The translations under genes and the position numbers were made by a program. A stretch of 26,873 bases of DNA from the IMG/VR virus record IMGVR_UViG_3300035100_000562, positions 1 to 26,873 of that record. One strand, 5' to 3'. This document shows positions 1 to 22,418 of the stretch, piece after piece. The notes beneath the pieces are model-generated. The model ran no database searches. It saw nothing but the letters and a program-made list of their open reading frames with translations, and had not been told where the DNA came from. Source of the DNA: a virus. Position 1 is the first letter of the stretch. The number at the start of each line of letters is the position of its first letter.

Positions 1-2191
1 CGTAAGTGGGGCCGGTCACCGGCGCCACCCGGTTGAACCCCTCGACGCCCTTCACCGGCGCCACCTGCGCGAAGCCAACCTGCCGCGCCCAGCCATAGAC
101 CGCGCTGGTCTCGTAGCCGGTGTCGATCGCCAGCCGCGCGATGGTCATTGGCGCGCCGCTTGCATGTCTCCATGTCCGGCCCAGAAGATCGGTGAGCCCG
201 CGCCAGCACGCCGGATCGGCGGGCCCGCCGTCGATAACGATGTGATCCACCAGCCAGCTTTCCAACCCGCGCCCCCAGGCCCAGACATCGACCTCGATCC
301 GGTCCTTCTGCACGTCCGCCCCGGCCGTCAGGAACAAGCCCTTCTCAGGCACCGTGCCCGCCGGCCAGTCTTCCTTCTGACCCGCCAGCCGTTGCCAGTC
401 GGGTGCGTCGCCGGTCTCCACCCAGGTTTCGCCAAGCGAGGTGTTGACGAAGGTCTTCATCGCCTCGTCGCCGCCGGCGCGGGCGGAGAGGAAGTTTTTC
501 ACCATCGCCTCGAGCCGCACCCAGGGCGAATAGATCTCGTTGAGGTGGAACCCGGCGATGCCCGTGAAAGGCCGCCGCGCGCGCCACTCGCCCCGGCCCA
601 CGGCCGACCATCTTGCCTGGTCGTCCCACTTCGCGGCGCAGTGGATGCACTCGTAATGCGCCGTCGCCGGCCGGTGCTCACCCTGCTCGCTCTTCTCCCA
701 TCTGACCTGCCCCCAGACCAGCACCTGGGCCTCGCCGCACTCCGGGCACGGCACCCAGTATTGCCGCTGGTCGCTTTCCTCATAGGCCGTCTCGATCCGG
801 CTCGCGCCCCTGTTGGTGGGCGTCGAAACGAGCACGATCTTGCGGTTCCAGAAGGTCACCGTGCGTTTCCTCGCCAGATTCACCGGGTCACCCTCGGCGC
901 CGGCGCTGAACGGGTAGCGGTCAACCTCGTCGCACAGAAGTAACCGGATCGGCCGGCTCGCAAGCCCCGAGGGCGCATTGGCCCCGACAATCGTCAGATG
1001 GCCGCCGGCAAAGCGCTTGTGCAGGATCTTGTTGTTGCCGTCGCGCGACTTCGGGTTGGCGATCTTGTCCCTGAGGCACGGTGTGTCGCGCGCCATTGGC
1101 GAGAAACGGTCCTTTGACCAGGTCTCTGCGTCGCGCTCGGTCGGCATCACCACCATGATCGGCGCCGGATCCTGGTCGATGTGGTAACCGACGGCATTGT
1201 TCAGCATCTCGGTGTTGTGGGTCGGGATCATTGATCGCCCGGCCAGATAAAGCCTGTTCGGGCTGTTGACCTGGATACAGCGCACCGGAACGCTGGCGAC
1301 CCTTTCGACTGCAATGATCCGGCGGCGCTCGGTCTCGGTGGTGCGCCGGCCTTCGCGCGAGGCAAGCCGCGCCCGCTTGCGCGCAAGCCGGAACACGGGT
1401 GTGTCCTCGTAGATCATGAAGGAGAACCGCGTCGCGGGCTTACCCGGTTTGCGCACCCCGTCGATCACCACGCTCGGCTGCTTTGCAACGGCGGTAAACT
1501 TGATCCCCAGCGTCGCCAGCAACTCGCCAAAGCCCTCGGCCAGACGCGGGTATATCGTGATGAACTCGCAGCGCCCGCGGTCATCAATGTACCCATCCGT
1601 GTCCATCAGCCCCTGCAGCAGCGCCAGCCGCTGATCTTTCGATGCCCTGAGATAGGCCGGTGGAATATGCTTGCCCGTGTCCGGTGTCTTGCGCGACTTG
1701 ATGAGGCCCAGTTCCCGCAGCCTCAGGCTGAAGGGTTTTGCCTCCGGCAGAACCGGATCGACCGACGCCCCGTGCTTCCACTGCATGCCGAATTGCCGCC
1801 CGCATTCGGCACAGTTGCCTCCCTTGTACCGGCCGACCACGTTCATGTCGTGCCCGCGCCGGCAGATGTGGTCTGGCCAGGGAAAGGTCGGCCTGAGCGT
1901 CAGGATGTGCGCAAACCGCTTGTCCTTCGCCTTGACCTCCACCGCCATGCCGCAGCCGCGCAGGTGATCGGCGATTTCGAGATCATCCTCATGCGCGGTG
2001 ATCTGCGAACCATAGCTGTGCCCGTCACCCAGCCACACGCCGAGCACATAGGGCGGGATCGGCAGGTCGGCCTCGGGCAGCTCCAGTGCCCCCGCCACCG
2101 GGATGGCATAGCGGTTTCTTTTTCTGTCTGTGTAGTAATGCGCTGTCTCAGCAATCTCCCTCGTTGTCAGAACCATCCGGTGGCTCATCAT
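1..2191 (-). CDS. Phage terminase large subunit (GpA-like), C-terminal part with C-terminal half of an intein; runs off the left edge
   Basis: The minus-strand frame is open from a TAG near 2238 to the window edge with no stop. It first encodes the endonuclease part and C-terminal splicing part of an intein (to 1214). From 1213 it encodes terminase: an extein starting TEMLNNAVGYH, a Walker B-like LLLCDEVDR near 940, a CPEC...CIHC zinc-binding-like pair near 620-750, and nuclease-side sequence such as GADVQKDRIEVDVWAWGRG near 250-320. This is the GpA family ATPase/nuclease that packages phage DNA into proheads. The N-terminal part lies in another frame (2148-2723). If this half is translated independently, ATG codons at 2191, 2188 or 2176 could start it, with GGGGGA about 8 nt before 2191. 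Otherwise it is the downstream part of a frameshifted gene. The protein end is outside the window. Confidence 0.85.
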   Translation of the reverse strand, partial: MMSHRMVLTTREIAETAHYYTDRKRNRYAIPVAGALELPEADLPIPPYVLGVWLGDGHSYGSQITAHEDDLEIADHLRGCGMAVEVKAKDKRFAHILTLRPTFPWPDHICRRGHDMNVVGRYKGGNCAECGRQFGMQWKHGASVDPVLPEAKPFSLRLRELGLIKSRKTPDTGKHIPPAYLRASKDQRLALLQGLMDTDGYIDDRGRCEFITIYPRLAEGFGELLATLGIKFTAVAKQPSVVIDGVRKPGKPATRFSFMIYEDTPVFRLARKRARLASREGRRTTETERRRIIAVERVASVPVRCIQVNSPNRLYLAGRSMIPTHNTEMLNNAVGYHIDQDPAPIMVVMPTERDAETWSKDRFSPMARDTPCLRDKIANPKSRDGNNKILHKRFAGGHLTIVGANAPSGLASRPIRLLLCDEVDRYPFSAGAEGDPVNLARKRTVTFWNRKIVLVSTPTNRGASRIETAYEESDQRQYWVPCPECGEAQVLVWGQVRWEKSEQGEHRPATAHYECIHCAAKWDDQARWSAVGRGEWRARRPFTGIAGFHLNEIYSPWVRLEAMVKNFLSARAGGDEAMKTFVNTSLGETWVETGDAPDWQRLAGQKEDWPAGTVPEKGLFLTAGADVQKDRIEVDVWAWGRGLESWLVDHIVIDGGPADPACWRGLTDLLGRTWRHASGAPMTIARLAIDTGYETSAVYGWARQVGFAQVAPVKGVEGFNRVAPVTGPTY

Positions 2192-2447
2192 CGAACAGGT
2201 CCCCCATGGCGCGGCTCGCGCGCACCTCCGTGTCGGACTCTACCGCCCAGAGATGATCGGCATCGGCGATGATCGAACTGCCGTCCGAGAACCGCACCCG
2301 GTAGCAGGGCCGGTCCGTCATCACCCCGGTCGCTGCCGTCACCCGGCAGGGCCGGCCCCGCTCGTCGAAGATCACATCGCCAACCCTGATCTCGCCCATG
2401 GTCGTCCAACCCCCGGGCGTCGGGATGGGCGTGTCCAGTGCCAGCGC
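1214..2447 (-). other. Intein with LAGLIDADG-type endonuclease inside terminase Walker A, class 3 features, frame-broken
   Basis: The intein replaces the boundary between GK and T of the terminase P-loop (SSSQVGK / TEML). Residue 1 is Ala (ALALDTP), not Cys or Ser. Block B ends HLW, block F has VRCIQV, and the C-terminus is MIPTHN followed by Thr. Ala1 plus Trp in block B, Cys in block F and Thr two before the terminal Asn is the WCT signature of class 3 inteins, which were described from phage proteins. Two dodecapeptide-like motifs, LGVWLGDGHS near 2010-2040 and LLQGLMDTDGY near 1580-1620, mark a LAGLIDADG homing endonuclease. Between them lies a zinc-ribbon-like cluster (CRRGHD, then CAEC). 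The span is 1234 nt, which is 411 codons plus one base, so it fits a single extra nucleotide. The frame changes between about 2150 and 2200. Confidence 0.85.
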
Positions 2448-2723
2448 CTTGCCCACCTGCGAACTCGACATGATGACGACGGTCTCGGCAGCGCCGTCCG
2501 AGATCGCCTCCATGATCCCGCGCTGATACTCGGCGCGCGAGGTCCGCCAGCGCCCCGGCTCGGCGCTCGCCTCCGAACTCAACCGCCTGTTCGCATCCGC
2601 CCAGTCACTGATCGTCAACTCCGGCGGCGGTGTCAGCGCCTTCAGCGCCCGGCGCACCGACCTTTGCAGTACCGGCGTCCCCGACAGGGTCAGGATCGTC
2701 GTTGTCTCGCTCAAGGCGCACAT
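2148..2723 (-). CDS. Phage terminase large subunit (GpA-like), N-terminal part with N-terminal half of an intein
   Basis: This part encodes the terminase N-terminus (ELTISDWADANRRLSSEAS, then GRWRTSRAEYQRGIMEAISD) up to the Walker A-type motif SSSQVGK. An intein start, ALALDTPIPTPGGW, follows directly. The open frame continues through intein block B (SSIIADADHLW) and ends at a TGA at 2148, where the sequence has already lost intein similarity. The continuation is in the frame one base over (1-2191). The start at 2723 is chosen because ATG there is preceded by GGAG and leads straight into terminase-like sequence; upstream in-frame residues look like a shadow of the small-subunit gene, which overlaps by about 119 nt. 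On its own this product would be an inactive N-terminal fragment unless it is spliced in trans. Confidence 0.8.
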   Translation of the reverse strand: MCALSETTTILTLSGTPVLQRSVRRALKALTPPPELTISDWADANRRLSSEASAEPGRWRTSRAEYQRGIMEAISDGAAETVVIMSSSQVGKALALDTPIPTPGGWTTMGEIRVGDVIFDERGRPCRVTAATGVMTDRPCYRVRFSDGSSIIADADHLWAVESDTEVRASRAMGDLFDDEPPDGSDNEGDC

Positions 2724-3177
2724 CCGTCTCCGCCAGTTCCTCCAGCGCCTCGCGCATGGCCCCGCGCAGCACGTCCCGCACCGCCCCGGGGCTTGCCGCG
2801 GCATGGACCTGCGGCGCCAGCCGGTCGGGCAGCGCCAGAAGCCGCGTGCGCAGCAGCGCCAGCACCGCGATCCAGGCCGCCTCCGCGTCCTCGGCCGCGA
2901 TCACCGCGCCGCGCCTCGTTTCGGCCTCCATCTCGGCGAGATCGGCCCGCGCCCGGATGAACCGCGCCCGTTCGGCGGCATAGTCCGGCGCGCCGGCCTG
3001 CGCCTTCGCGGCCTGATCGCGCAGGTAACGCACATAGCCGCGCACCGAGCCGATCAGGTCGTATTGGCCCCGCGTGGCCTTCGGGATCACGCCCTCGCGG
3101 CTGAGCTGCTGCACCCGCCGCTCCGAGAGGTCCAGAAGCTTCGCGATCACCCCGATGGGCTGGCTGGGCGATGACAC
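2605..3177 (-). CDS. Phage terminase small subunit, Nu1-like
   Basis: The 190-aa protein opens with a MerR/excisionase-type winged helix-turn-helix (residues 8-45: IGVIAKLLDLSERRVQQLSR, then REGVIPKATRGQYDL). This is the DNA-recognition arrangement of Nu1-type small terminases, which bind the packaging site and recruit the large subunit. A long charged helical stretch follows (about residues 60-165, rich in A, R and E), as expected for oligomerisation. The gene lies immediately upstream of the GpA-like large subunit and overlaps its start, the usual order of the pair. It is the first gene of the left minus-strand block; the 114 bp to the divergent plus-strand gene must contain its promoter. 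The last 25 residues are low-complexity (G, A, D) and overlap the next gene. Confidence 0.85.
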   Translation of the reverse strand: MSSPSQPIGVIAKLLDLSERRVQQLSREGVIPKATRGQYDLIGSVRGYVRYLRDQAAKAQAGAPDYAAERARFIRARADLAEMEAETRRGAVIAAEDAEAAWIAVLALLRTRLLALPDRLAPQVHAAASPGAVRDVLRGAMREALEELAETDVRLERDNDDPDPVGDAGTAKVGAPGAEGADTAAGVDDQ

Positions 3178-16739: not shown

Positions 16740-17417
16740 ATGGACGTCCACCACACGCTCGCCGACCGTCTCCATGCCCGCGCCAGCCAGCTCGGCCTGA
16801 GCCCTGCCCATGTTGCCGAGATGGCCGGGGTCAATCGTTCCTTCGTCTACGACATCCTGCGTGGCCGCTCGACGCGGCCTGGAATCGACCGCCTCGCGGA
16901 GGTCGCGCGTGTCTTGAAGGTGGAACTCGACTGGTTGATCCACGGCATAGGTAATGTCGAAGGCACCCCTCCGTTCATCGAGAACCCGGACGATGCTTTC
17001 GTTTCGATCACCCACGCGGGCGTCAGGCCTTCAATGGGCGGCGGTTCAGTCGTCCTCGAAGACCATGTAGCGCCAGATCGCGCCTATCACTTCAGAAAGT
17101 CTTGGATCAAACACGGCTTGAAAGCTGCGCCCTCTCAATTGCGCATCATGAAGGTCGAGGGAGACAGCATGGAACCCACGCTCTTTGATGGTGACACGGT
17201 GCTCGTTGACATGGACCGTAAGGCACCAAACCCACCGGGCATCTTCGTTCTCGATGATGGCATGGGCTTAGTGGCGAAACGCCTGCAGCATGTCCCGAAC
17301 AGCGACCCGCCCGCCGTCCGCGTAATTTCGGACAACAAGCATTACCCCGAATACGAGCGCACGGCTGACGAGATCAATATCGTGGGGCGGATCCGCTGGT
17401 TTGCACGGGAGGTTTGA
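16740..17417 (+). CDS. Prophage CI-like repressor: XRE HTH plus S24 (LexA-type) peptidase domain
   Basis: The start at 16740 (MDVHHTLADRLHARASQLGL) follows GGGGA at 6 nt; the longer frame from 16650 covers the promoter region. Residues 8-70 are an XRE-type HTH (AHVAEMAGVNRSFVYDILRG). Residues about 115-220 are an S24 peptidase with catalytic Ser143 in VEGDSMEPTLFDGD and Lys180 in GLVAKRL. THAGVRP (91-97) offers an Ala-Gly site for self-cleavage in the linker. RecA filament would trigger self-cleavage and induction. It is transcribed away from the divergent winged-helix gene and controls the early region; downstream it is followed 1 nt later by the interrupted gene at 17419. Confidence 0.92.
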   Translation: MDVHHTLADRLHARASQLGLSPAHVAEMAGVNRSFVYDILRGRSTRPGIDRLAEVARVLKVELDWLIHGIGNVEGTPPFIENPDDAFVSITHAGVRPSMGGGSVVLEDHVAPDRAYHFRKSWIKHGLKAAPSQLRIMKVEGDSMEPTLFDGDTVLVDMDRKAPNPPGIFVLDDGMGLVAKRLQHVPNSDPPAVRVISDNKHYPEYERTADEINIVGRIRWFAREV

Positions 17418-17418
17418 G

Positions 17419-18150
17419 ATGATGGAATTCCGCTCCCTCGCTGACGATGATCCCGCATTAAGCTTCTCGCCGCTCCTGCGCGGGGTGCTGAAAACCTTCG
17501 CCTACCTCGACGAGCATGGCTCCATCGACCTCACCCCGTCCAAAGCCTTCAAGCGCAATTTCGTTCGCTGGGCCGCAGCCGAATTCGACTGGCCCGGGCA
17601 TAGCGAGGCGGACCTCTTCGCCGTCAACAAAATACTCAACGAACATGACTTCATGCCGCTGGGGGATATTCACTTCCTGCTGACCACTTTGAAGATGGGT
17701 CGGAACTACAAGGGAAATTTCAAGCTGACGAAGTCAGGGGCGGAGCTGGCGCATCAACCCGGACGTTTGTTCGGGATCATAACGCCGTTCTACCTCTTTG
17801 AAATCGATCATTCGGGTTGGTCACGGACCCCGGACCAAGTGCTGCCGGGCAACTGGGACGTCTTCCTCAATGTCCTCAATGTCGAGACTGAGGACGGCGC
17901 AGCAGGCGCCCACCTGCGGCAGATCTTGTTCGGTGAACCAGATCCCAGTCCCTTTCCACGCTAAGATGATATGATGGGCAGCCTTTACACTCAGGTCTTG
18001 CGCCCTCTCGTCTGGACCGGCCTTCTTCAGGAAACCCGGCTCGATGGGTCGTTTCGCTCGCAAGATAGCCTGTTCACCAAGACTCCGCTTTGGAAAGCCG
18101 TCCTGAAACTAGATACCGACACTATGGTGCGGCCAGCAACGCGGCATTGA
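17419..18150 (+). pseudogene. Hypothetical gene interrupted by an in-frame TAA
   Basis: The gene starts at ATG 17419 with GGGAGG upstream, just after the repressor stop. The first 181 codons (from MMEFRSLADDDPALSFSPLL, with NFVRWAAAEFDWPGHSEADL and LTTLKMGRNYKGNFKLTKSG) read as a normal soluble protein. TAA at 17962-17964 then interrupts, and the same frame stays open and sensible through RPLVWTGLLQETRLDGSFRS and FTKTPLWKAVLKLDTD to TGA at 18148. A Tyr codon to TAA substitution would explain this: the context PFPR-stop-DDMMG is smooth. The family is one seen next to prophage repressors but has no function I know. The truncated 181-aa product may still be made; an ATG at 17971 could restart the rest. 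Confidence 0.75.
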
Positions 18151-18187
18151 TGAAATCATATCGTCAATCAATCAGCGTTAGTTGGAA

Positions 18188-18210
18188 GCGGAGGATGCAT
18201 TCTCCTCCGC
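18188..18210 (+). terminator. Stem-loop GCGGAGGA / TCCTCCGC, possible terminator
   Basis: A perfect 8-bp stem with 7-nt loop (TGCATTC) lies 38 nt after the end of the interrupted gene and 131 nt before the membrane cassette. No T-run follows. It would separate the repressor transcript from the cassette, which would then need its own promoter. Confidence 0.45.
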
Positions 18211-18340
18211 ACCGCCGAATGGAAACACCCCGGTGGATCAATGATCGGATGCAATCGATCAGAAGGACGACACTCGAAGCCGCTTTCCTTCTCTGCCAGG
18301 TGACGTAACATAGCAGGGTTCCGTCAACCAACAGACACTC

Positions 18341-19111
18341 ATGACAAAAAACGCACTGAATATATGCCTTGCGACATCCGCATTATTTTTACCCCTCTAC
18401 CTTTGGCGGAGCACTTATCCTTCAAGCGATTGGGCGGTTTTGGCCTTTCTCCCGCTCTCAGTAATGTTATTTTTCGGATACCTGTCGCTTAGCGCGGCCA
18501 TTTTTCGAGCCAGGTTCCGCGCCGCAATCAGAGCAGGATCCCCGCTAATGAGCATTTTATCCGGTAGAATAAGGGCGATTTCAGGGGCCCTAATATTTGT
18601 GTTGATCTCGATACCGCTTCTGGCTTGGCAAGCACTCGTATCGAGCCTTTCAGAAATCCTAATTCTGATCGCGCTTGGCGTTCTTTCCGGGGGCTTGTTT
18701 GCCGGATTAAAACTGAAGTTTTTGCCACATTTCCACCAGCCCTTCGCCAACGCAGTAGCCATTTCAATCGGCACATGGATTGCCGCCGCAGCCTTTATTC
18801 CAATCATCGCATGGATGAACTGGTACTATGTGTCTTATCCTGGAGAAATCCGTACCGCCAGCCTTCCTGAAGCGGTGATGCAGGGTTTGCAGGAACTCCC
18901 ACCACGCCGAGGCTGGATAGCCGAAATTTTGGCGCCCATGTACGCCTATGAAGCCGGAAAGTTGTGGGCTGTTGTACAGTTAGGCTCTTCTAAATGGTCG
19001 ACCATACTTTACAGTCTTGATACAGCCTTGGTAAGCTTTATAGTAGCACGGTCCAGCATAGTTCTTACCCTACTTGCACAAACCCTAGATCGAGACAATG
19101 ACGCTGCATGA
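18341..19111 (+). CDS. Polytopic membrane protein, 256 aa, unknown family (cassette gene 1)
   Basis: Hydrophobic segments are at about residues 5-22, 31-55, 78-100, 104-124, 137-160 and 221-247, so 5-6 membrane spans. Basic residues between spans 2 and 3 (FRARFRAAIRAG) suggest that loop is cytoplasmic. Between the last two spans lies a soluble part of about 60 residues (GEIRTASLPEAVMQGLQELP). No transporter or channel signature is recognised. The ribosome site is weak. It is clearly more AT-rich than the phage genes and overlaps the next gene by ATGA, so the pair arrived and works together. Placement between the repressor and integrase genes is where phages carry exclusion, defence or toxin genes. 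Function not known. Confidence 0.8.
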   Translation: MTKNALNICLATSALFLPLYLWRSTYPSSDWAVLAFLPLSVMLFFGYLSLSAAIFRARFRAAIRAGSPLMSILSGRIRAISGALIFVLISIPLLAWQALVSSLSEILILIALGVLSGGLFAGLKLKFLPHFHQPFANAVAISIGTWIAAAAFIPIIAWMNWYYVSYPGEIRTASLPEAVMQGLQELPPRRGWIAEILAPMYAYEAGKLWAVVQLGSSKWSTILYSLDTALVSFIVARSSIVLTLLAQTLDRDNDAA

Positions 19112-20106
19112 CCCAGTCACCGAACGGATATGAGACCAAGAAAAACAAGACAGCATCGCGTTTTTTTTGGGCGGCAATTCTGGTGTTGGCAGGCCTTACA
19201 TTGATGCTCACATTGGTCGGCACTCTACGCAACTCCGAACCTGTGGGACCAACCACCTTCGAAATCCCAAAGACAACGCTAGAGACTATACTTAGCGAGG
19301 CTGCGGAAAAAGCACAGGTAATTGTTGCGCCCGAAACAGAAACGATCCTGCAAAACGTCTACGCTCCGGTATATGCAGCGATCCCAGAATATGCGGAATT
19401 CCATTATTCCGTATTGGGGGAATACGTTGAATTGACAGAAGCCGCGTTCGGCCAAATGAGCGATGGGCTCTACGATCGGTTGTTCAAGGGGTTTGAACAG
19501 CGGCTCTCAAACGCTGTAACATTGTTGGATCAAAAGTATTCCGAGGCGTACCGCAGCGCACTCAAGGAGGAGATCGAAACGACAATTCCGACAGAGCAAT
19601 TATCACTGCCCCTTGGGGAATTGACGCAAGCTGCACTGGAAGACGCAGTCGGCCGCGCAAGAGTTACGCTTCCACTTGCCACAGTCGTAGTTGGTGTTGC
19701 AGGGAGCGGCACTCTTAAAGTTGTCGCAGCAACCGTTGCAAAGAAAATGGCAGCAAAAGTTGCTGCTAAAGCAGCGGCTAAAGGTGTTGCAAAAGGCGGT
19801 GGTTTTCTGGTCGGTGCTGGCGGAGGAGCTTTATTGTGCTCTTGGAGTGGCCCTGGAGCAGCCCTATGTGGCATCCTCGGCGGAACAGCAGCATGGCTTC
19901 TAGCTGACGCAGCCGTCGTCAATATTGACGAATATTTCAATCGAGATGAGTTCGAAGCTGAACTCCGGGCACTGATCGACGAAGATAGAGCGGCCAGGCA
20001 ACTCCTAATTGAGGAAGCACTGCGAAACAAAGCAGCTCAAATGGATGCAGCCACAAATGAAATCATGAAAGATTTTACACTTCGCGATTTGTCCTCGGGG
20101 AACTAA
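19108..20106 (+). CDS. Membrane-anchored protein with glycine-rich hydrophobic domain, 332 aa (cassette gene 2)
   Basis: A basic N-terminus (NGYETKKNKTASRFF) precedes one membrane span at about 19-40. A long helical, mostly acidic stretch follows (about 50-180). A hydrophobic helix is at 187-208 (TLPLATVVVGVAGSGTLKVV), then a Lys/Ala-rich amphipathic segment (AKKMAAKVAAKAAAKGVAKG) and a Gly-rich hydrophobic region 230-270 (GGGFLVGAGGGALLCSWSGP). The C-terminal 60 residues are acidic and helical (NRDEFEAELRALIDEDRAAR). The glycine-zipper-like middle resembles membrane-inserting or pore-forming segments, but no family is identified. The start overlaps gene 1 (ATGA), with no gap. Codon use and base composition follow gene 1. 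Confidence 0.82.
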   Translation: MTQSPNGYETKKNKTASRFFWAAILVLAGLTLMLTLVGTLRNSEPVGPTTFEIPKTTLETILSEAAEKAQVIVAPETETILQNVYAPVYAAIPEYAEFHYSVLGEYVELTEAAFGQMSDGLYDRLFKGFEQRLSNAVTLLDQKYSEAYRSALKEEIETTIPTEQLSLPLGELTQAALEDAVGRARVTLPLATVVVGVAGSGTLKVVAATVAKKMAAKVAAKAAAKGVAKGGGFLVGAGGGALLCSWSGPGAALCGILGGTAAWLLADAAVVNIDEYFNRDEFEAELRALIDEDRAARQLLIEEALRNKAAQMDAATNEIMKDFTLRDLSSGN

Positions 20107-20360
20107 CCCATTACCTTTCAATGGTGTCCTGATAATTAGTTTTTTAGCATTAGCGCATGAAATTCAACGCAAACGTTGAGCCTCGCCTTTGCAGGGTGCC
20201 CTCATACGAATTCAGCTAGGCCAACAAGTTGCATCCCCGATGGCGACGCAAACCCGATCCTGCACGCAGCACCCCGCACCATTCCCGCAACCCATTGTTT
20301 TGACTTGAATACCAGCGCCGCTTGAAGCCCAGATAGGGCAACAACCCGAAAGGCGCTCCA
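20107..20360. other. 254-bp intergenic region before the integration cassette
   Basis: The first 60 bp are AT-rich with a weak CCATT/AATGG stem at 20108-20124 and a run of six T at about 20137-20142, a possible terminator for the membrane cassette. A small CAACG/CGTTG hairpin lies at about 20167-20180. TTGACT near 20300 is a possible -35 for the integration cassette. No gene is seen. Confidence 0.4.
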
Positions 20361-20546
20361 ATGCTTAATGATATCTCAACCCCGATTTCGGGGCCCAACC
20401 CCTTATGCCCAGACCGTATGTCGGCAGAGGCGCGCTTCGCCGAAATCGGACGCATCTTGGCCGTTGGCGTGGTTCGCCTGAACGCCACGAAGTCCAGCGG
20501 TTTATCTGCCGAAACCGGAGACAGTTTTGTGGACTTGTCGCCCTGA
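20361..20546 (+). CDS. Small conserved protein preceding DUF2924, 61 aa
   Basis: The protein runs MLNDISTPISGPNPLCPDRM, then SAEARFAEIGRILAVGVVRL, ending ETGDSFVDLSP. A small ORF with the segment MSAEARLAEIGRILA and a Ser-rich end typically sits just ahead of DUF2924 and serine recombinase genes in alphaproteobacteria, so I take it as real in spite of its length. AAAGGCG lies upstream. The gap to the DUF2924 start is 46 nt. Function unknown; the helix could bind the recombinase or DNA. Confidence 0.72.
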   Translation: MLNDISTPISGPNPLCPDRMSAEARFAEIGRILAVGVVRLNATKSSGLSAETGDSFVDLSP

Positions 20547-20592: not shown

Positions 20593-21093
20593 ATGAAGCA
20601 TGACAATAAGATAACGCCCGCAAAGCTGGGTCTGGATCCACAGACTGATCAAACCGTCCTGGCTCGCCTGGCCACCTTGAGGGCCATGTCGGTCAAGGAG
20701 CTAAAGGCCGAATGGGAGAAGCTCTTCGGCATCCCTGCGCCGAACAACAGCCGCAAGTTCCTGGAATTCAGGATCGCCTATCGCATCCAGGAATTGACCT
20801 ACGGCGGCCCCGATAGGGAAACGCGCTGCATGCTGGATCTGCTGGCTGATGAGGTCGAGGGACATGCGCGACACAAGCACCGGATCGGGGATCCCCGAAA
20901 TCCCGTCACGGGCACCAAACTCATCCGCGAGTGGGACGGCGTTGAGCACACCGTAACCGTGCTGAAAGACGGCTTCGACTGGCAGGGGCGCAAATTCAAA
21001 TCGCTCTCGGCCGTGGCCCGCACCATTACCGGCACACGCTGGAATGGCTATCGCTTCTTCGGGCTACGTGAGCGCAAGCGGGAGCAAGCATGA
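20593..21093 (+). CDS. DUF2924-domain protein, recombinase-associated
   Basis: The start at 20593 (MKHDNKITPAKLGLDPQTDQ) follows GGAGGAAT. The body has the DUF2924 signature: LRAMSVKELKAEWEKLFGIP, NNSRKFLEFRIAYRIQELTY, then TKLIREWDGVEHTVTVLKDG, FDWQGRKFKSLSAVARTITG and TRWNGYRFFGL. DUF2924 proteins accompany large serine recombinases in alphaproteobacterial islands and are presumed accessory factors. At 166 aa the length is normal. Its stop overlaps the recombinase start (ATGA), so the two are coupled. Confidence 0.93.
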   Translation: MKHDNKITPAKLGLDPQTDQTVLARLATLRAMSVKELKAEWEKLFGIPAPNNSRKFLEFRIAYRIQELTYGGPDRETRCMLDLLADEVEGHARHKHRIGDPRNPVTGTKLIREWDGVEHTVTVLKDGFDWQGRKFKSLSAVARTITGTRWNGYRFFGLRERKREQA

Positions 21094-22418
21094 TGGAGGG
21101 CACCAACCGCCTGAACCGTCGGCTGCGTTGCGCCATCTACACTCGCAAGTCGACCGAAGAAGGTCTCGACATGGAGTTCAACACCCTCGACGCCCAGCGT
21201 GAGGCTTGCGAGGCCTACATCGCCAGTCAGCGATCTGAAGGTTGGGTCGCCACCCGCGATCGCTATGACGACGGCGGTTTCTCTGGCGGCAACCTCGAAC
21301 GACCCGGTCTCAAGCAGCTTCTGACGGACATCGACGATGGTCTGGTCGACGTGGTTGTGGTTTACAAGATCGACCGCCTGTCGCGGTCGTTGATGGATTT
21401 CTCCAAGCTGGTCGAGGTGTTCGACCGCAACGGTGTCACCTTCGTCTCTGTCACGCAGTCGTTCAACACCACCACTTCGATGGGACGGCTGACACTGAAC
21501 ATCCTGCTCAGTTTTGCCCAGTTCGAGCGTGAGGTGATCGGTGAGCGCATCCGCGACAAAGTTGCCGCGTCCCGCAAACGCGGAATCTGGATGGGAGGCT
21601 ACGTGCCCCTCGGCTACGATGTGCAGGATCGAAAGTTGGTGGTGAACGACGCAGAGGCCGCATCGGTCCGTCGCATCTTCGAGCGGTTTGTTGAACTCGG
21701 CTCCGCCACCGTTTTGGCACGCGAACTTCGCCGCGAGGGGTTCCGAAACAAACAGGGCACGCTGATCGACAAAGGTTACCTCTACCGGCTGCTCAAGAAC
21801 CGAGTTTATCGCGGTGAGGCAGTTCACAAGGGCAAAGCCTATCCCGGTGAACATGACGCTATCATCGACGCAGGCCTTTGGGATCGGGCGCATGCCATCT
21901 TGCAGGAAAGCCCCCGCAAGCGGGCCAACAACAGCCGTGCGCAGACGCCAGCGCTGCTGAAGGGGCTGATCTTTGGCGAAAATGGCGCGGCCATGACGCC
22001 CACCAGCACCAAGAAGGGGGCGAAGCTCTATCGATACTACGTTTCCATGGATGTGATCCGGAATCGCGAAACCTGCGAGGAGACTGCCCCAACACGGCTT
22101 GCGGCTGGTATGGTTGAGGACGCTGTAGTGACCGAGGTTCGGCGCATTCTGCAGACGCCAGAGGTGGTCACGCAGGTGCTAGCCGCCTTGAAACGCGAAG
22201 GCGGCGGCGCGTCAGAGGCGGATGCCATCGCAGCGCTGCATGAGTTCGGCGCCCTCTGGGCGCGGCTGTTTCCGGCCGAGCAGGCACGGATCATCCAGCT
22301 TTTGGTGCGGCGCGTCACCGTCACCGCAGCAGGGCTTGAGGTGGACATTCGGCGCGAAGGCATTGCCGGGGTCGTCCGCGAGATGGTCGCGCCGCGCAGG
22401 GTGGAGGCAGCGGAATGA
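21090..22418 (+). CDS. Large serine recombinase (integrase)
   Basis: The resolvase N-terminal domain has catalytic Ser21 in IYTRKSTEEG, the DGGFSGGNLERPGL segment, KIDRLSRSLMDF and the helix FAQFEREVIGERIRDK. The recombinase DNA-binding domain covers about 185-285 (VNDAEAASVRRIFERFVELG; KGYLYRLLKNRVYRGEAVHK). The usual cysteine zinc ribbon is missing: LLKGLIFGENGAAMTPTSTK has no CxxC pair, as in some members of this clade. The 442-aa length is at the short end of the large serine class. It would insert and excise the element. The start is set by the ATGA overlap with DUF2924 and GGGAG upstream. Confidence 0.95.
   Translation: MMEGTNRLNRRLRCAIYTRKSTEEGLDMEFNTLDAQREACEAYIASQRSEGWVATRDRYDDGGFSGGNLERPGLKQLLTDIDDGLVDVVVVYKIDRLSRSLMDFSKLVEVFDRNGVTFVSVTQSFNTTTSMGRLTLNILLSFAQFEREVIGERIRDKVAASRKRGIWMGGYVPLGYDVQDRKLVVNDAEAASVRRIFERFVELGSATVLARELRREGFRNKQGTLIDKGYLYRLLKNRVYRGEAVHKGKAYPGEHDAIIDAGLWDRAHAILQESPRKRANNSRAQTPALLKGLIFGENGAAMTPTSTKKGAKLYRYYVSMDVIRNRETCEETAPTRLAAGMVEDAVVTEVRRILQTPEVVTQVLAALKREGGGASEADAIAALHEFGALWARLFPAEQARIIQLLVRRVTVTAAGLEVDIRREGIAGVVREMVAPRRVEAAE

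What the first reader, a model, noticed from the sequence alone, without database searches (positions are those of the whole stretch)
18341..20106. AT-rich two-gene membrane cassette between repressor and integrase genes
A 5-6-span protein and a membrane-anchored protein with a glycine-zipper-like hydrophobic core overlap by ATGA, are compositionally unlike neighbours, and occupy a phage accessory position. I recognise neither family. The pattern (polytopic protein plus protein with pore-like segment) suits a superinfection-exclusion, abortive-infection or toxin module. This is the best candidate for an undescribed system here.
Basis: inference. Interest (0 to 1): 0.75.

Follow-up and report, generated by a model that had tools for sequence, protein, structure and literature searches.

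The report
Prophage cargo: split inner-membrane protein pair
A bacterial virus genome carries an inserted 2.1-kb piece with two overlapping genes that together make one undescribed inner-membrane protein complex, which other bacteria encode as a single fused protein; it may protect the host cell against further viruses, but what it does has not been tested.

Summary
Two genes, 18341-19111 (256 aa) and 19108-20106 (332 aa), overlap by ATGA and form the most AT-rich stretch of the window. They are the only evident genes in a 2,091-bp insert (about 18151-20241) that is absent from eight related phage contigs with the same backbone.

Neither protein matches Pfam, NCBIfam, PHROGs or PADLOC above threshold. 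Homologous pairs, same order and overlapping when intact, occur in about 2% of sampled Rhodobacteraceae genomes. A sister clade encodes both as one ~600-aa protein. The two genes are therefore split halves of one complex: six TM helices (gene 1), then one TM, an acidic predicted-periplasmic helical domain with a FHYSVLGEY motif, a cationic glycine-rich hydrophobic hairpin and an acidic tail (gene 2). The split falls in the cytoplasmic TM6-TM7 loop.

Chromosomal relatives sit among housekeeping genes, not in defence islands, and no other viral relative was found. The fusions argue against a toxin plus antidote. My best reading is a lysogenic-conversion module acting at the inner membrane, most likely limiting superinfection; that function is inference, about 0.4. 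A non-defence envelope role is the main rival.

The parts
18151..20241 (+). Inserted cargo unit of about 2,091 bp; a GATG lies across both junctions (18149-18152 and 20239-20242), which may be chance
   Evidence: Homology to L082, L084, L092, L093, L098, L101, L103, L104 stops at about 18150 and resumes at about 20242; no cassette homologue in 80 related viral loci
18341..19111 (+). Gene 1: 256-aa polytopic inner-membrane protein, 6 TM, N-in and C-in predicted
   Evidence: ORF; hydropathy and positive-inside over 9 homologues; BLASTP to the L003 homologue E 1e-15
19108..20106 (+). Gene 2: 332-aa membrane-anchored protein; starts inside gene 1 (ATGA)
   Evidence: ORF; homologues at 22-51% identity
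18491..18586 (+). Gene 1 cytoplasmic loop TM2-TM3 (residues 51-82), mean K+R 5.8
18812..19024 (+). Gene 1 predicted periplasmic loop TM5-TM6 (residues 158-228), acidic on average, with a partly conserved P-R...E...KLW pattern
19171..19227 (+). Gene 2 TM anchor (residues 22-40), equivalent to TM7 of the fused relatives
19366..19434 (+). Gene 2 conserved motif PVYxxIPxYxxFHYSVLGEYxEL (residues 87-109); FLDWYYSLxxEYxR in fused relatives
   Evidence: alignment A7
19669..19920 (+). Gene 2 hydrophobic / Lys- and Gly-rich / hydrophobic hairpin (residues 188-271); its middle (207-252) holds essentially no acidic residue in the split homologues
19906..19968 (+). Gene 2 conserved motif DAAVxNIDExxNRDEFxAxLR (residues 267-287)
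16740..17417 (+). Neighbour: S24/HTH prophage repressor, upstream on the same strand
   Evidence: Pfam Peptidase_S24 and HTH_3
17419..18150 (+). Neighbour: orf243 up to its ancestral stop; in this window a TAA at 17962-17964 ends it after 181 aa
   Evidence: relatives read a 243-aa protein through this point
20593..22418 (+). Neighbours: DUF2924 protein and serine integrase, the conserved end of the phage
   Evidence: Pfam; 80 related viral loci

Best explanation
Shown (about 0.9): the two genes are the only evident genes of a 2.09-kb insert in a temperate-phage backbone and belong to an undescribed family that exists as a split pair or as one fused chain, so they work as one complex. Well supported (about 0.75): it is an inner-membrane complex with six TM helices from gene 1 and a seventh from gene 2, which carries an acidic helical domain in the periplasm and a cationic glycine-rich hairpin that is in, or can enter, the inner membrane. 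Inferred (about 0.4): the phage carries it as a lysogenic-conversion module acting at the inner membrane of the lysogen. Most likely it hinders a second phage's DNA entry, or opens and depolarises the membrane when infection disturbs it (RexB-like). In this model the periplasmic domain senses or contacts, gene 1 holds it, and the glycine-rich hairpin acts.
For: Empty sites in eight phages with the same backbone. Foreign GC and GC3. Downstream of the repressor on the same strand with no promoter or terminator signal above chance in between, so expression with the repressor is possible, as for lambda rexAB and CarolAnn 43/44 (PMC6426606). Split pairs in Rhodobacteraceae and no lone gene 1 in the 389 sampled genomes without the pair. 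Fused relatives form a sister clade, support 100/99; fusion N-termini match gene 1 by profile (hhalign 93.2%, E 3e-7) and share its six TM spacings and loop charges, with the gene 2 anchor as TM7. Pairwise identities of the two genes correlate over seven pairs (Mantel r 0.58, p 0.015). Both ORFs stay open although nearby phage genes carry stops.
Against: No defence-system, superinfection-exclusion or RexAB model matches the window proteins. Chromosomal homologues lie among housekeeping genes, not in defence islands or prophages. No other phage and no plasmid with an intact copy was found. No phenotype data exist. The gene 2 model is weak (pLDDT 64) and the gene 1 model unusable (pLDDT 47).
Confidence: 0.42

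Rival explanations
1. It is an ordinary but undescribed host envelope protein (stress, lipid or cell-envelope upkeep) picked up by the phage, with no anti-phage role; any benefit is host fitness.
For: Chromosomal homologues sit beside housekeeping genes such as ilvC, metG/truB and guaB; the fused form shows vertical synteny next to a YhhQ-like gene in four genomes; no defence islands.
Against: Presence is patchy (about 2% split, about 3% fused of sampled family genomes), the loci of the split form differ, and sequences diverge fast (gene 1 15-35% identity), which is unusual for upkeep genes.
Confidence: 0.35
2. Gene 2 is a pore-forming toxin and gene 1 its membrane immunity protein (toxin-antitoxin or bacteriocin type).
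For: Gly-rich hydrophobic hairpin; the insignificant top structural matches are alpha pore-forming toxins (SmhB, AhlB, ClyA; best E 0.02, TM 0.18); the Paracoccus plasmid copy lies next to a MazE/Doc pair.
Against: Relatives fuse both into one chain, which does not fit a toxin and a separate antidote; gene 2 keeps a TM anchor; no fold match is significant.
Confidence: 0.08
3. It is a solute transporter or channel pair.
For: 6+1 TM architecture; weak sub-threshold MscL similarity (13.5 bits against a cut-off of 27.4).
Against: No transporter family matches any member above threshold; neighbours show no conserved substrate pathway.
Confidence: 0.1
4. Passenger DNA without function in a decaying prophage.
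For: orf243 and a small ORF beside the insert carry stops, and the TerL intein reading frame is broken; two chromosomal copies of the pair are degenerate (L026, L032).
Against: Both cassette ORFs are fully open with conserved motifs, order and overlap.
Confidence: 0.05

Closest known systems
Lambda RexAB and CarolAnn gp43/gp44 exclusion systems
   Same: Two adjacent prophage genes on the repressor strand, one a polytopic membrane protein, cargo position near the repressor (PMC6426606)
   Different: No RexA, RexB or DUF4747 match; here both partners are membrane proteins, the second is predicted periplasmic, and relatives fuse them
P22 SieA superinfection exclusion
   Same: Prophage-borne inner-membrane protein in the lysogen (PMC10883804)
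   Different: SieA is one 162-164-aa protein with three TM helices and acts alone; no sequence match here
Alpha pore-forming toxins (AhlB/SmhB/ClyA)
   Same: Helical protein with a hydrophobic hairpin between long helices
   Different: Structural matches insignificant (E >= 0.02, TM 0.18); gene 2 is membrane-anchored and its relatives are fused to a polytopic partner
Hypothetical proteins WP_167623613.1 and WP_167623612.1, Paracoccus sp. AK26 plasmid pAK3
   Same: Homologue of gene 2, 38% identity, all motifs
   Different: Frameshifted into two ORFs, C-terminal extension, no gene 1 upstream

Membership tests
RexAB-type exclusion | Sequence match to RexA or RexB (DUF4747) | tested here: not met
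   No Pfam, PHROGs or PADLOC match for P0001 or P0002
RexAB-type exclusion | Two genes downstream of the repressor on the same strand | tested here: met
   Repressor 16740-17417 +, genes 18341-20106 +; shared transcription not shown
RexAB-type exclusion | Infection-triggered membrane depolarisation | not testable with these tools
   Needs phage challenge
SieA-type superinfection exclusion | Single ~160-aa inner-membrane protein with three TM helices | tested here: not met
   256 aa with 6 TM plus a 332-aa partner
Toxin-antitoxin / toxin-immunity | Separable toxin and antidote chains | tested here: not met
   Both halves fused in one ORF in at least 7 Rhodobacteraceae genomes and in G863 and G846
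MscL | Score above the Pfam/NCBIfam cut-off | tested here: not met
   13.5 against 27.4 and 13.9 against 142 bits
Alpha pore-forming toxin (ClyA/AhlB) | Significant fold match | tested here: not met
   Best E 0.021, TM 0.18 on a pLDDT-64 model
LeoABC dynamin-like proteins | Significant profile match and a GTPase domain | tested here: inconclusive
   Four of 14 gene 2 domains match LeoB at best E 0.001, perhaps through the glycine-rich segment; no Pfam GTPase match
Split/fused 7-TM family defined here | Gene 1 upstream of and overlapping gene 2, or fused to it; xxxYSxxxEY-type motif; Gly-rich hairpin; D/E-E-x(3)-R motif | tested here: met
Phage cargo (moron) | Absent from otherwise syntenic relatives, foreign composition | tested here: met
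Phage cargo (moron) | Own promoter and terminator | tested here: inconclusive
   Nothing above shuffled background; the scan covers only sigma-70 consensus

The most novel reading that the evidence does not exclude
A new kind of anti-phage system: a two-gene inner-membrane guard whose periplasmic helical domain meets incoming phage DNA or ejection proteins and whose glycine-rich hairpin then blocks or opens the membrane; Rhodobacteraceae chromosomes carry the same machine split or fused.
Probability: 0.25. Interest if true: 0.75.

Novelty: new variant of a known kind. Interest (0 to 1): 0.5.

Why it matters
The family is absent from Pfam, NCBIfam, PHROGs and PADLOC, yet its architecture is clear and occurs both split and fused, and phages with an empty site give a natural control. 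That makes an unnamed inner-membrane complex testable. If it guards against phages, it adds a membrane-level defence in a major environmental bacterial family.

Tried and rejected
Viral-contig scans with P0001, P0002, two alignments and two DNA motif patterns found no relative. Three-row alignment A1 had no usable conserved stretch. PDB sequence searches found nothing. Structure prediction could use only window and L003 rows, so it was shallow; gene 1 failed (pLDDT 47) and fold searches with gene 2 gave no significant match. Wide scans of class and phylum gave mostly short glycine-zipper matches (model positions about 215-255), which I discarded as composition. The defence-island idea was tested on 62 neighbour proteins: only methyltransferase models (CcrM appears among the NCBIfam matches) and MADS-like matches appeared. 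Rfam, promoter, terminator and repeat scans showed nothing special. No E. coli DNA match. Relatives by taxonomy of the window's own record are not available because it is viral.

Full report
Observation. The stretch has 50.3% GC against a window mean of 60.7% (sd 4.0) and lies in the lowest 0.4% of equally long stretches. Its GC3 (0.50, 0.47) differs sharply from that of the neighbours (0.67-0.77). The window is a whole virus record of 26,873 bases. At its right end is an oligopeptide-type ABC transporter gene set, which I take to be host DNA (inference).

Insert. Eighty viral contigs were kept that carry a close relative of the serine integrase. Eight of them share the whole backbone orf227 - repressor - orf243 - DUF2924 - integrase, and in all eight the distance from the end of orf243 to DUF2924 is about 0.36 kb instead of 2.4 kb. 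Alignment shows homology ending at about 18150, at the ancestral stop codon of orf243, and resuming at about 20242. The insert is therefore about 18151-20241, and the two genes are its only evident content. No relative of either gene was found in any of the 80 loci. Other relatives carry other cargo nearby: L094 has an IS256-type transposase and an HNH/HIT-like protein between repressor and orf243, and L128 has a RecD-like helicase (these names are my reading of the sequences). The region is thus an accessory site.

Family. No match above threshold exists in Pfam, NCBIfam, PHROGs or PADLOC for the window proteins, nor in the libraries tried for their relatives. The first relative was a frameshifted plasmid gene in Paracoccus sp. 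AK26. A genome scan then gave L003, a Rhodobacteraceae MAG contig with both genes in the same order between ilvC and an EamA-like gene. Gene 2 is 43% identical there, and gene 1 matches at 25% identity with E 1e-15. A profile search of 397 genomes of that family found 16 matches. Eight genomes carry the split pair with gene 1 directly upstream; two of these are degenerate (L026 with a short gene 2, L032 with a short gene 2 and a gap between the genes). Seven carry one fused ORF of about 580-670 aa (longer where the called start is too early) with a polytopic N-terminus and a gene 2-like C-terminus. One more (L036) looks like a fused gene with a disrupted frame. A gene 1 profile found exactly the eight split-pair genomes. 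They are in the profile, so that match is by construction, but the other 389 genomes gave no lone gene 1. A broader gene 2 profile over 363 of these genomes raises the count of fused or partly fused forms to about eleven. Fused relatives occur sparsely outside that family (L079, L080, L081, L163). No other viral relative and no intact plasmid relative was found.

Split and fused are two forms of one machine. In a maximum-likelihood tree of the gene 2 domain the seven intact split rows (window included) and ten fused rows fall on opposite sides of one branch with support 100/99; long branches are present, but the separation holds in all 200 bootstrap trees. Profile comparison links split gene 1 to the fusion N-termini (93.2%, E 3e-7). 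Averaged hydropathy puts TM helices at 4-22, 32-50, 83-101, 106-124, 139-157, 229-247 in gene 1 and at 7-25, 30-48, 81-99, 105-123, 141-159, 221-239 in the fusions, with matching loop lengths and charges; a weaker hydrophobic peak at 208-226 of gene 1 (mean 1.14) I do not count. A seventh TM at 264-282 of the fusions corresponds to residues 22-40 of gene 2. The gene boundary thus falls in the cytoplasmic loop between TM6 and TM7. In all seven intact pairs gene 2 starts inside gene 1 (overlap 4, 8 or 11 bases), and the identity matrices of the two genes correlate (Mantel r 0.58, p 0.015).

Anatomy of gene 2. After TM7 come an acidic segment of about 147 residues, predicted helical (mean pLDDT 64, pTM 0.54), with the motif PVYxxIPxYxxFHYSVLGEYxEL; then a hydrophobic stretch (188-206), a Lys- and Gly-rich stretch with essentially no acidic residue (207-252), a second hydrophobic stretch (253-271), and an acidic tail with DAAVxNIDExxNRDEFxAxLR. 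By the positive-inside rule the simplest topology is N-in, a periplasmic domain, a membrane hairpin whose cationic loop faces the cytoplasm, and a periplasmic tail (inference). Whether the hairpin is always inserted or only on a trigger cannot be told.

Function. The phage acquired the pair near the repressor, on the same strand, as rexAB lies next to cI in lambda and 43/44 next to the repressor in CarolAnn (PMC6426606). Nearby phage genes carry stops (orf243 at 17962-17964, the small ORF at 20361-20546) and the TerL intein reading frame is broken, while both cassette ORFs stay open; this fits a benefit to the lysogen but may only mean a recent arrival. An inner-membrane complex with a periplasmic part is where exclusion proteins such as SieA act (PMC10883804). 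Against this, chromosomal relatives sit among housekeeping genes and not in defence islands, so a general envelope role is almost as likely. A toxin with its antidote is unlikely because relatives fuse the two. Structural searches gave no significant match; the top but insignificant ones were alpha pore-forming toxins.

Verdict. A real, undescribed two-gene membrane module, shown to be phage cargo and shown to be the split form of a family that also exists fused. Its function is open, with membrane-level superinfection control my first choice at about 0.4.

Noticed in passing
window 17962-17964: orf243, downstream of the repressor, is cut to 181 aa by a TAA stop; related phages read a 243-aa protein through this point.
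   Followed up: yes
window 20361-20546: Small ORF ahead of DUF2924 (motif SGPNPL) is conserved in 13 relatives checked but ends early here at a TGA where none of the relatives has a stop.
   Followed up: partly
window 1-2804, - strand: Large terminase appears to hold an intein (near 'SSSQVGKALALDTPIPTPGGW'), and the reading frame breaks inside the intein.
   Followed up: partly
L094:4175-6401: Related phage with an IS256-type transposase and an HNH-HIT-like fusion protein between repressor and orf243.
   Followed up: no
L128:5000-7195: Related phage with a RecD-like helicase between repressor and DUF2924.
   Followed up: no
L002:5719-7409: Paracoccus plasmid pAK3 gene 2 homologue, frameshifted, without gene 1, with a long C-terminal extension, next to a MazE/Doc pair.
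   Followed up: yes
L030, L033, L034, L035: Fused form lies beside a YhhQ-like queuosine-precursor transporter gene; in L033 and L035 also beside an ArfB-like release factor and a pncB-like gene.
   Followed up: partly
L079:8092-9918, L080:8097-9935: One 45%-GC genome carries two fused paralogues, 71% identical; L079 is near two FHA-domain-like proteins.
   Followed up: no
gene 2 family (alignment A7): Four of 14 members match PADLOC LeoB weakly (best E 0.001) and one PDC-M09B (0.0012), perhaps only through the glycine-rich segment.
   Followed up: partly
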